From Candidatus Kaiserbacteria bacterium (GTDB lineage Bacteria > Patescibacteriota > Minisyncoccia > Phycocordibacterales > UBA2100), in NCBI GenBank assembly GCA_028286865.1, contig JAQBQU010000011.1, positions 1-44,440 of the forward strand: a DNA stretch of 44,440 nt. The letters run 5' to 3'. Made by a program: the position numbers and the translations under genes. Below the pieces are notes generated by a model, which searched no databases, was not told the DNA's origin, and worked only from the letters and a program-made list of their open reading frames with translations. This document shows positions 857-23,135 of this stretch, in pieces; position 1 is the first letter of the stretch, and every line of letters begins with the position of its first letter.

Positions 857-1273
857 TTAGTCGAAGCGCGAGTCATCGCCGTTCCAGTTCCACGAACCGT
901 TTTCTGATTGATACAGTCTGGGGATCAGGCTGATCTGAACCCAGACGATATCTTCCTCGAGCTTATGCTGGAAGCGACGCGCTTTTTTCTTGAACCAGTT
1001 ATCCACTGATTCTCTAGTTGCGCGGATGTCGTCCCTGTCCCTCAGTCCATCTGACCCCATTACGTGAGGCACATTGAATGTGGGCCCCGAATAGCGGTAC
1101 ACGAACCTGTCCATTGTTCCGACCGGGTCCTTTTCAAGACGGTCGGAAGTTAGCAATTTAGTATTGTCGTACAGATCGCCCCAGGTCATGACGCTGACCC
1201 GATACTGGACTGGGCCGTATTGTCCCAGGACGACGGCGGCTACCTTGTAGTAACGATACTTTATTTGGTTCAT
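857..1273 (-). CDS. hypothetical protein with strong Shine-Dalgarno
   Basis: A 138-residue protein with no family that I recognise. It is soluble in appearance, with many aromatic residues (KYRYYK near the N-terminus, ENGSWNWNG near the C-terminus) and a charged middle segment, DNWFKKKARRFQHKLEED, likely helical. The start is well supported: AAGGAGG lies 5 nt before the ATG, and a consensus-like promoter is found further upstream. The gene is a single-gene unit, divergent from gyrA, and ends at its own terminator. Its SD-led architecture differs from the leaderless neighbours and resembles other accessory genes in the window (4006, 9576, 31340, 32718). Confidence 0.7.
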   Translation of the reverse strand: MNQIKYRYYKVAAVVLGQYGPVQYRVSVMTWGDLYDNTKLLTSDRLEKDPVGTMDRFVYRYSGPTFNVPHVMGSDGLRDRDDIRATRESVDNWFKKKARRFQHKLEEDIVWVQISLIPRLYQSENGSWNWNGDDSRFD

Positions 1274-8296: not shown

Positions 8297-8378
8297 GGGC
8301 AGATGGCGGAATTGGTATACGCGCTAGGCTTAGGACCTAGTCCCGCAAGGGTTGGGGGTTCGAGTCCCCCTCTGCCCA
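8297..8378 (+). tRNA. tRNA-Leu (TAG)
   Basis: Acceptor GGGCAGA/TCTGCCC with discriminator A, anticodon loop CTTAGGA (anticodon TAG) on a CTAGG/CCTAG stem, a long variable arm (TCCCGCAAGGGT region) and T-arm GGGGGTTCGAGTCCCCC. CCA is not encoded; ACA-T follows. A structured repeat lies directly downstream. Confidence 0.95.
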
Positions 8379-8381
8379 CAT

Positions 8382-8422: not shown

Positions 8423-8431
8423 GAGGACGGG

Positions 8432-8520
8432 GACTCGAAGGACGGAGCGGCTTGGCCGCGAGTCGGGGTCGCGCAACTTTTCAGCAGAAAAGTATGCGTG
8501 ACCGAGGACCTCTGCCCACA
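8432..8520 (+). repeat. tRNA-associated structured repeat, copy A
   Basis: GACTCG...GCGGC-TTG-GCCGC-GAGTC, then CGGGGTCGCG and a second hairpin (ACTTTTC-AGCA-GAAAAGT) closed by GGTCGCG (8467-8473) with CGTGACC (8497-8503). It ends with a copy of the tRNA 3' end: CCTCTGCCCACA at 8509-8520 repeats 8369-8380. It also contains GGGGACTCGAA, the reverse complement of the T-arm of this tRNA. Same family as copies near 9146-9336, 18442-18565 and 23044-23135. Confidence 0.75.
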
Positions 8521-9145: not shown

Positions 9146-9336
9146 GGCTCGCACATGTGGTCACCAGGCTCCGGTCACGAATAACTTTTGAATCGTAAGC
9201 AAAAGTTTTCTCGACCCCGGCTCGCTGCCGCATGAGCTCATGCGGACCGCTCCGGCTCGCACTTTGTGGTCACAGATAATTTCTTGCTAGAAATTTCCGC
9301 GACCCCGCCTCGCAGCCAAGCTGCTCCGGCCCGCAC
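9146..9336 (-). repeat. tandem tRNA-associated structured repeats, copies C1, C2 and a truncated third
   Basis: Read on the minus strand after tRNA-Lys: unit C1 9336-9265 (GTGCGGGCCGGAGC ... GTGACCACA), unit C2 9262-9173 (GTGCGAGCCGGAGC ... GTGACCGG), a further GTGACCACA at 9164-9156 and the beginning of a third unit, GTGCGAGCC, at 9154-9146. C1 has GCAGC-TTG-GCTGC, then CGGGGTCGCGG, then AATTTCT-AGC-AAGAAATT. C2 has a perfect CCGCATGAGCTCATGCGG palindrome, CGGGGTCGAG, then AACTTTT/CAAAAGTT. Units are spaced head to tail by 1-2 bases, or by a short duplication. Confidence 0.75.
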
Positions 9337-9380
9337 ATAGCAGAAAATCCGCCCCCGGCGGATTTATCTGTCTATGTGCG
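9332..9380 (-). terminator. composite hairpin / terminator after tRNA-Lys
   Basis: On the minus strand CGCACATAG (starting inside the tRNA 3' end) pairs with CTATGTGCG, enclosing CAGA/TCTG and a strong AATCCGCC/GGCGGATT stem followed by TTTTCTG. The inner stem can terminate; the outer stem competes with the tRNA acceptor. The same plan follows tRNA-Tyr with other bases. Confidence 0.6.
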
Positions 9381-9449
9381 CCCACCAGGATTCGAACCTG
9401 GGACCGTTCGCTTAAGAGGCGACTGCTCTACCAGCTGAGCTATGAGCGC
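9377..9449 (-). tRNA. tRNA-Lys (CTT)
   Basis: Acceptor GCGCTCA/TGGGCGC, D-arm TAGCTCAGCTGGTAGAGCA, anticodon loop CTCTTAA (anticodon CTT), T-arm CCAGGTTCGAATCCTGG, discriminator A. CCA is not encoded (ACATAG follows). Confidence 0.93.
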
Positions 9450-18441: not shown

Positions 18442-18565
18442 GGTCACGGCTTCTTTCTTAAGAAGTTAATTGTGGTCACGGATATTCTTCCTGCCGTCGC
18501 AGTCAGAATTCCGCGACCCCGACTCGCGGTTCGCTCTACTGAGCTCACATCGCTGCGTCTCGCAC
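18442..18565 (-). repeat. tRNA-associated structured repeat, copy D, plus a remnant
   Basis: Minus strand after tRNA-Tyr: 18565-18471 begins GTGCGAGACGCAGC, has TGAGCTCA in the variable region, then GCGAGTCGGGGTCGCGG and a hairpin ATTCT...AGAAT closed by GGTCGCGG/CCGTGACC, and ends GTGACCACA. A remnant follows (CTTCTT/AAAGAAG and GTGACC, to 18442), as if a second tandem unit had lost its first half. Confidence 0.7.
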
Positions 18566-18612
18566 AAAAGCAGAAAACCTCCCGCAGGGGAGGTTATTCT
18601 GTCTTTTGTGCG
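18561..18612 (-). terminator. composite hairpin / terminator after tRNA-Tyr
   Basis: Minus strand: CGCACAAAAG (starting inside the tRNA 3' end) pairs with CTTTTGTGCG, enclosing ACAGAA/TTCTG and AACCTCCC-CTGC-GGGAGGTT followed by TTCTG. The layout matches the hairpin after tRNA-Lys, with the bases of the outer and inner stems changed on both sides. Confidence 0.6.
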
Positions 18613-18691
18613 CCGGGCAGGATTCGAACCTGCGAAGACCGGAGTCGCATGGTTTACAGCCATGTGCATTTGACCACTCTGCCACCGACGC
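18609..18691 (-). tRNA. tRNA-Tyr (GTA)
   Basis: Acceptor GCGTCGG/CCGGCGC, anticodon loop CTGTAAA (anticodon GTA) on CATGG/CCATG, long variable arm as expected for bacterial Tyr, T-arm GCAGGTTCGAATCCTGC, discriminator A. CCA is not encoded. Confidence 0.94.
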
Positions 18692-22938: not shown

Positions 22939-23019
22939 GCCGGAGTGGCGGAATGGTATACGCACACGACTCAAAATCGTGCGGGGCAACCCTTGAGAGT
23001 TCGAGTCTCTCCTCCGGCA
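22939..23019 (+). tRNA. tRNA-Leu (CAA)
   Basis: Acceptor GCCGGAG/CTCCGGC, anticodon loop CTCAAAA (anticodon CAA) on CACGA/TCGTG, long variable arm, T-arm GAGAGTTCGAGTCTCTC, discriminator A. CCA is not encoded (ACAA follows). The last 18 bases of the gene and the next 3 bases (23002-23022) are repeated at 23115-23135. Confidence 0.94.
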
Positions 23020-23022
23020 CAA

Positions 23023-23135
23023 GTTTACGCAGTAAACGAGCATGACTCGAAAGCCGCAGCAGCTCGGCTGCGAGGCGGGGTCGCGGGTCGAGCCAGTAGG
23101 CGAGAACCTGTGACCGAGTCTCTCCTCCGGCACAA
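23023..23135 (+). repeat. tRNA-associated structured repeat, copy B, ending in a duplicate of the tRNA 3' end
   Basis: A GTTTAC-GCA-GTAAAC hairpin (23023-23037), then from 23044 GACTCGAAAGCCGC, hairpin GCAGC-TCG-GCTGC (23059-23071), GAGGCGGGGTCGCGG, a second hairpin (GGT..GCC-AGTA-GGC..ACC) closed by GGTCGCG/TGTGACC. The last 21 bases (23115-23135) are an exact copy of 23002-23022, so the tRNA 3' end recurs at a distance of 113 bases. Confidence 0.78.

What the first reader, a model, noticed from the sequence alone, without database searches (positions are those of the whole stretch)
23002..23135. Exact 21-bp direct repeat of the tRNA-Leu (CAA) 3' end at a distance of 113 bases
Bases 23002-23022 (end of T-arm, acceptor strand and next bases) are repeated without change at 23115-23135, again with the structured element between. 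Two independent tRNA loci with the same arrangement make chance unlikely and suggest a common mechanism that uses the tRNA end as target or as primer.
Basis: seen in the sequence. Interest (0 to 1): 0.75.

Follow-up and report, generated by a model that had tools for sequence, protein, structure and literature searches.

The report
Tiny guide-carrying elements at tRNA ends
The repeated tRNA end marks one copy of a widespread, very small, protein-less mobile DNA element of candidate-phyla bacteria that appears to pick its insertion site, usually the 3' end of a tRNA gene, with a short built-in guide sequence, and that leaves a working copy of the gene end behind.

Summary
The 21-bp repeat is real, and it is one case of a large family. 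Between the copies lies a structured core of 62-100 nt: two hairpins, all 20 modelled base pairs covary in 106 distinct sequences, and a G-U pair is conserved. No Rfam match. The host genome has 23 copies, 20 of them directly downstream of tRNA genes. 36 of 41 genomes searched (own plus relatives) carry it (0-45 copies each); it also occurs in other Patescibacteria and in Elusimicrobiota. A close relative has the same tRNA-Leu/parB locus without the 113 bp.

Further copies sit at conserved codons near the 3' ends of topA, rpsI and rpsR. In topA both gene-end copies can be intact coding ends that differ mostly at synonymous sites. So the element brings a replacement gene end and displaces the resident one.

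Just 5' of the core is a segment of about 11 nt complementary to the target across the insertion point. Its 3-nt part matches either the T-loop or the acceptor end of that particular tRNA in 73 of 89 cases. Acceptor-type sites have a G at position -4 (32/33).

Best reading: a non-coding integrative element that finds its target by base pairing and is moved by an enzyme I could not identify.

The parts
22939..23020 (+). Target gene: tRNA-Leu(CAA), intact; insertion point lies in its T-loop between 23002 (C56) and 23003
   Evidence: ARAGORN and Rfam; insertion point from A/A2 boundary and guide register
23003..23022 (+). A: upstream copy of the gene 3' end, part of the functional tRNA
   Evidence: identical to the tRNA in the empty-site genome G009
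23023..23037 (+). small trailer hairpin GTTTACGCAGTAAAC
   Evidence: sequence
23044..23051 (+). Guide GACTCGAA, complementary to TTC|GAGTC at 23000-23007, spanning the insertion point
   Evidence: sequence; family-wide statistics
23053..23115 (+). Conserved core: hairpin P2 (23053-23076) and hairpin P3 (23079-23115), ending in GTGACC
   Evidence: covariance model hit 59.6 bits, E 2.6e-9; covariation; RNA fold
23116..23135 (+). A2: second copy of the tRNA 3' end, followed by the native flank shared with the empty site of G009
8297..8379 (+). tRNA-Leu(UAG), second target in the window (T-loop type, insertion point 8361|8362)
8429..8439 (+). Guide GGGGACTCGAA of the tRNA-Leu(UAG) element
8441..8503 (+). 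Core of the tRNA-Leu(UAG) element; A2 follows at 8504-8520
   Evidence: 77.2 bits
9268..9330 (-). Core of first element behind tRNA-Lys(CUU) (tRNA 9376-9449, -), acceptor type; guide 9332-9342
   Evidence: (75.2 bits)
9173..9256 (-). Core of second, tandem element behind tRNA-Lys(CUU)
   Evidence: 72.7 bits
18474..18559 (-). Core of element behind tRNA-Tyr(GUA) (tRNA 18608-18691, -), acceptor type; guide 18561-18571
   Evidence: (78.2 bits)

Best explanation
A non-coding mobile integrative element with a built-in target guide. Unit: replacement gene 3' end (A), terminator or trailer hairpin, guide of about 11 nt, structured core ending in GTGACC. It inserts at 5'-G-NNN|N8. The guide pairs with the 3 nt before and up to 8 nt after the cut, on the coding strand or its transcript. 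After insertion the gene reads into the element's own end A, so the tRNA or protein stays intact, and the resident end is displaced downstream as A2. Shown: the family, its fold, empty and filled sites, the fixed insertion point, guide-target complementarity, G at -4, and replacement ends in topA. Inferred: that the guide acts as RNA (conserved G-U pair, wobble-tolerant pairing), that it selects the target during integration, and that an enzyme supplied in trans does the cutting and joining.
For: Core fold: all 20 pairs change on both sides, 95.5% of cells paired, 0/500 shuffles reach it, collapse on sliding. Copy number 0-45 between related genomes. 20 of 23 own copies downstream of tRNAs, binomial p about 3e-39. 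Empty orthologous site in G009. topA filled in 7 relatives, empty in others; in G012, A and A2 both encode the C-terminus with mostly synonymous differences. Guide: 11/11 complementary upstream site in 31/152 elements against 0.3% permuted; complementarity 0.83-1.00 at -3 to +5, then decline. Guide triplet matches the T54-56 triplet in 40/89 and the acceptor triplet in 33 of the other 49 (permuted mean 5.0, maximum 13). G at -4 in 32/33 acceptor sites against 46% of tRNAs without element. In topA the guide's last base fits the host Gly codon, GGG or GGC, in 7/7 (by eye).
Against: No mobilising enzyme found: tyrosine recombinase, Y1 transposase/RAYT, reverse transcriptase, IS110 and IscB families do not track copy number. 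No larger version with genes inside. No transcript or movement data. A guide matching its target could also be made by inverted copying at insertion, or be maintained by selection afterwards. A subclass (GTGAG-hairpin-CGCAAG-core) lacks the replacement end and a matching A2.
Confidence: 0.68

Rival explanations
1. Miniature, integrase-dependent integrative element (an attP-only element) moved by a tyrosine recombinase in trans; the antisense segment is a by-product of att-site symmetry.
For: Same outcome as classical islands: tRNA T-loop, acceptor or protein 3' ends as targets, element-borne end restores the gene, tandem arrays at one site; 39/41 genomes have a PF00589 gene.
Against: The complementary segment is present at non-palindromic sites too (acceptor ends, topA, rpsI); one genome has 11 copies and no PF00589 hit (G006), another has 5 such genes and no element (G026); the one gene in this genome is XerC/D-like, next to rarA; over 20 different tRNA and protein sites for one enzyme would be unusual.
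Confidence: 0.13
2. Mobile self-splicing RNA: the element is an intron-like ribozyme that reverse-splices into tRNAs and mRNAs, using the guide as internal guide sequence (3 nt 5' exon, then either its own 5' end or the 3' exon, as P1 and P10 in group I introns), followed by cDNA and recombination.
For: Guide order and its two alternative partners (A and A2) mirror the P1/P10 logic; fold with conserved G-U argues for RNA; A2 in G012 and G016 pairs with the guide if G-U wobbles are allowed (by eye).
Against: Core is only 62-100 nt and matches no ribozyme in Rfam; A2 is decayed in many copies, so splicing is not needed; no reverse transcriptase in several copy-rich genomes.
Confidence: 0.09
3. 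Homing by an RNA-guided nuclease: the element encodes a guide RNA, the cut lies 3 nt from a short motif as with Cas9 or IscB, and repair copies the element in.
For: Guide 5' of a structured scaffold; insertion exactly 3 nt from a conserved G.
Against: The filled site keeps the full target next to the element, so it would be cut again; IscB-type RRXRR proteins absent; the element brings its own divergent gene end, which simple gap repair does not explain.
Confidence: 0.05
4. Host regulatory or processing RNA of tRNA trailers that happens to be near tRNAs.
For: Strong fold; always on the gene's strand; close to tRNA 3' ends.
Against: Absent from some close relatives and present 35-45 times in others, at protein-gene ends, polymorphic at orthologous loci, tandem insertions.
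Confidence: 0.03

Closest known systems
Genomic islands and prophages integrated by tyrosine integrases at tRNA/tmRNA 3' ends
   Same: Target class (T-loop, acceptor end, 3' ends of conserved genes), gene restored by an element-borne end, second copy left downstream, tandem arrays
   Different: About 110-300 bp, no genes, one family serves many different sites, target-complementary guide and structured core
IS110 family with bridge RNA (Nature 2024, PMC11208160)
   Same: Structured RNA with short guides that base-pair with the target across the recombination point; circular-intermediate logic possible
   Different: No DEDD recombinase in 9 of 10 genomes tested; a single guide of about 11 nt, no donor loop recognised, replacement gene end carried
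IS200/IS605 and REP/RAYT elements
   Same: Short guide near an end hairpin pairs with the cleavage or target site; non-coding derivatives spread in trans
   Different: No Y1 transposase in the host genome; gene-end replacement; conserved G-U pair and covariation point to RNA
Group I introns and IStrons
   Same: Guide covering 5' exon and 3' exon in one stretch, insertion into tRNA genes
   Different: No group I core, last nucleotide C not G, no evidence of splicing
TIGR-Tas (Science 2025, PMC12045711)
   Same: Guides of similar shortness reported from parasitic bacteria; evolutionary link to IS110
   Different: Arrays of dual spacers with a Tas protein; here single guides at integration junctions

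Membership tests
Tyrosine-integrase integrative element | Element restores the target gene's 3' end with its own copy | tested here: met
   topA A and A2 both coding, divergent mostly at synonymous sites
Tyrosine-integrase integrative element | Encodes an integrase, or one is consistently present in trans | tested here: not met
   No gene inside the element; G006 has 11 copies and no PF00589, G026 has 5 PF00589 and no copy
MITE of a DDE transposon | Terminal inverted repeats and a fixed-length target duplication | tested here: not met
   Duplication varies from 3 to about 40 nt and ends differ from site to site
IS200/IS605 or RAYT derivative | Y1 transposase in the genome | tested here: not met
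   PF01797 absent from G000, one hit each in copy-rich G024 and G040
IS110 derivative | DEDD recombinase PF01548 in the genome | tested here: not met
   1 of 10 genomes
IS110 derivative | Guide complementary to the target across the recombination point | tested here: met
   (one guide only; no donor-binding loop seen)
Group I/II intron or other known ribozyme | Match to the Rfam family | tested here: not met
   No match at gathering score; best permissive hit E 0.26, NiCo riboswitch
Group I/II intron or other known ribozyme | Self-splicing activity | not testable with these tools
   needs in-vitro transcription
Retroelement (DGR, retron, SINE-like) | Reverse transcriptase in the genome | tested here: not met
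   PF00078 absent from G000, G024, G034
IscB-type RNA-guided nuclease guide | RRXRR/IscB protein in the genome | tested here: not met
   No hit over the cut-off in 41 genomes
TIGR-Tas | Dual-spacer array with Tas (Nop-domain) protein | not tested
   Tas proteins were not searched; no array seen at these loci

The most novel reading that the evidence does not exclude
A previously undescribed kind of programmable insertion: a protein-less element of 75-300 bp whose transcript finds G-NNN|N8 sites through a guide of about 11 nt, integrates by an unknown recombinase or by RNA catalysis, and repairs the gene it hits with its own 3' end.
Probability: 0.5. Interest if true: 0.95.

Novelty: categorically new. 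Interest (0 to 1): 0.86.

Why it matters
tRNA 3' ends are among the commonest landing sites of mobile DNA, and their specificity is usually explained by dedicated integrases. Here one structured non-coding family occupies more than twenty different tRNA and protein-gene ends, apparently because each copy carries a short rewritable guide. If the guide is what selects the site, this is a compact guide-directed integration system outside the known IS110, CRISPR-transposon and IS200/IS605 kinds, and it is widespread in Patescibacteria and present in Elusimicrobiota. It would also account for much tRNA-trailer and gene-end variation in these genomes. It sets a concrete, testable search for the missing enzyme.

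Tried and rejected
Simple tRNA remnant or slippage: rejected by the core fold, the number of loci and the divergent coding ends in topA. Rfam families, strict and permissive: no match. Partner genes by co-occurrence: PF00589, PF01797, PF00078, PF01548, PF14239 gave no candidate. Cargo-bearing elements (second copy kilobases away): none; three apparent cases were an indexing artefact (two) or a 2-mismatch chance hit. Viral vector: one pattern gave 2 IMG/VR contigs with no covariance-model hit; a looser pattern gave 83 contigs, which look like coding sequence, and the model found nothing in 80 of them. tRNA primer model: the antisense segment matches genomic trailer, not CCA. Tetraloop-receptor, hammerhead and HDV resemblances were considered by eye and not supported. 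Literature searches on tRNA-end repeats, CPR repeats and guide-directed integration found no description; only open-access PMC papers were covered.

Full report
Observation. The 21-bp repeat is exact and at the stated coordinates. It overlaps the end of an intact tRNA-Leu(CAA). A scan for the sequence between the copies showed the same motif behind tRNA-Leu(UAG), tRNA-Lys (two copies) and tRNA-Tyr in the window, and behind Gly, Leu(CAG; here upstream), Ala, Glu and Arg tRNAs elsewhere in the 871-kb genome.

The core. Eleven copies were aligned and a covariance model built. On 106 distinct sequences all 20 modelled pairs change on both sides in at least some sequences, 95.5% of cells are paired, no shuffle of 500 reaches this, and sliding the partners destroys it. 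The core has two hairpins. P2 contains a GGA/GA internal loop. P3 starts GGTCGCG and ends GTGACC, and one of its pairs is G-U in 92 of 106 sequences, which points to RNA as the folded form. No Rfam family matches.

Distribution. Own genome: 23 hits, 20 within 330 nt downstream of a tRNA on the same strand, next to 16 of 43 tRNA genes. Of 41 genomes searched (own plus 40 relatives), 36 have copies, from 0 to 45 per genome, with 0 and 35 inside one genus. In 240 genomes drawn evenly from the phylum, 20 have strong hits. Public genomes show it in Kaiser-, Taylor-, Nomura-, Adler-, Lloyd-, Niyogi-, Yanofsky- and Yonathbacteria, Saccharibacteria and Elusimicrobiota, again mostly next to tRNAs.

Insertion sites. 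Two positions in tRNA genes dominate: the T-loop (GGTTC|GA) and the end of the acceptor stem (NNC|ACA). Other sites are the 3' ends of conserved protein genes: topA (same codon in several genomes), rpsI, rpsR and a conserved secreted protein; gene names are my reading of the translations. Empty sites exist. Genome G009, whose ParB fragment is 93% identical to the window's, has the identical tRNA-Leu(CAA) followed directly by the flank that in the window follows the second copy; the window is that site plus 113 bp. topA is filled in seven relatives and empty in others.

What is brought in. In topA the upstream copy A and the downstream copy A2 can both be intact coding ends. In G012 they encode KTIPERCSNKQCPNHRPDKLTKK* and KTIPERCSNKACPNHRPDKLK* with mostly synonymous differences (counted by eye). 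Two such sequences diverged under selection in different lineages and were brought together. A simple target-site duplication would not give this. rpsR shows four differences, all synonymous (by eye). A therefore most likely comes with the element, and A2 is the displaced resident end.

The guide. Directly 5' of the core lies a stretch complementary to the target across the insertion point. Of 152 elements with enough flank, 31 have an 11/11 complementary site in the upstream 230 nt; with guides permuted between elements this is 0.3%. Per position, complementarity is 0.83-1.00 from -3 to +5, declines to 0.62 at +7, and is at background from +8. These 105 sites were selected for complementarity, so an unselected test was made with tRNA geometry alone. 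Of 89 elements behind a tRNA, the guide triplet is the exact complement of that tRNA's T54-56 triplet in 40. In 33 of the remaining 49 it is the complement of that tRNA's acceptor triplet 70-72, where permutation gives 5.0 on average and never more than 13 in 10,000. The acceptor type also needs a G just upstream: 32 of 33 sites, against 46% in tRNAs without an element. The same trailer (ACAAAAGACAGA) accompanies six tRNA types, so the guide triplet changes with the site while the rest is shared. In topA the last guide base follows the host Gly codon (GGG or GGC) in seven of seven (by eye).

Mechanism. The simplest reading is an element that integrates at G-NNN|N8 sites found by base pairing. 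The guide can pair with A (in the element) and with the resident sequence, later A2, and its last 3 nt pair only with the target's upstream flank. Integration regenerates the full target next to the gene, which fits the tandem arrays with the newest copy nearest the tRNA (inferred). The enzyme is unknown. Own genome: one XerC/D-like recombinase next to rarA, no Y1 transposase, no reverse transcriptase, no IS110, no IscB. An RNA-catalysed route is not excluded, because the guide's two partners mirror the P1/P10 arrangement of group I introns.

Limits. Genome assemblies are drafts, so missing genes are weak evidence. Classes T-loop and acceptor were assigned from the guide itself. Selection after insertion, or inverted copying during insertion, could also produce guide-target matches. 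One subclass (GTGAG-hairpin-CGCAAG) lacks the gene end and a matching second copy and may be a decayed or differently working form. Only open-access literature was searched, so an existing description elsewhere cannot be excluded.

Noticed in passing
L089-L091, L096-L101 (G024), L102-L108 (G040), L171, L197: Subclass with fixed 5' part GTGAG-hairpin-CGCAAG before the core, often away from tRNAs, without replacement gene end; some interrupt tRNA 5' halves next to an intact tRNA copy (L103, L108).
   Followed up: partly
L107 around 858-944 (-): A copy appears to sit inside a REP-like palindrome (TGTCATCCTTGCGAATGCGAGG ... GGATTCCCGTC), suggesting REP repeats are also targets.
   Followed up: no
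L002/L024 (G000:C8:11572-11633): Element inside a broken tRNA-Leu 5' part, upstream of intact tRNA-Leu(CAG); its A2 resembles the anticodon arm of that tRNA.
   Followed up: partly
L254 (G004) and L060 (G005): Variant cores with P3 changed to GTGCCC...GCGGGC; the strands still pair, and in G004 the unit sits at the same tRNA-Leu(CAA)/parB locus.
   Followed up: no
whole_genomes, PF01797 hits: Many relatives carry several RAYT-like Y1 transposases of 220-260 aa (up to 13 per genome), unrelated in number to this element.
   Followed up: no
L137, L159, L179, L195: Elusimicrobiota copies share the T-loop arrangement and a conserved extra hairpin before the guide (GCAAAGTCAACTGCTTGACTTTGCGT type), implying transfer between phyla or great age.
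   Followed up: partly
L172 432-577 (-): A copy in Niyogibacteria with an enlarged P3 insertion of about 60 nt, possibly another small element nested inside.
   Followed up: no
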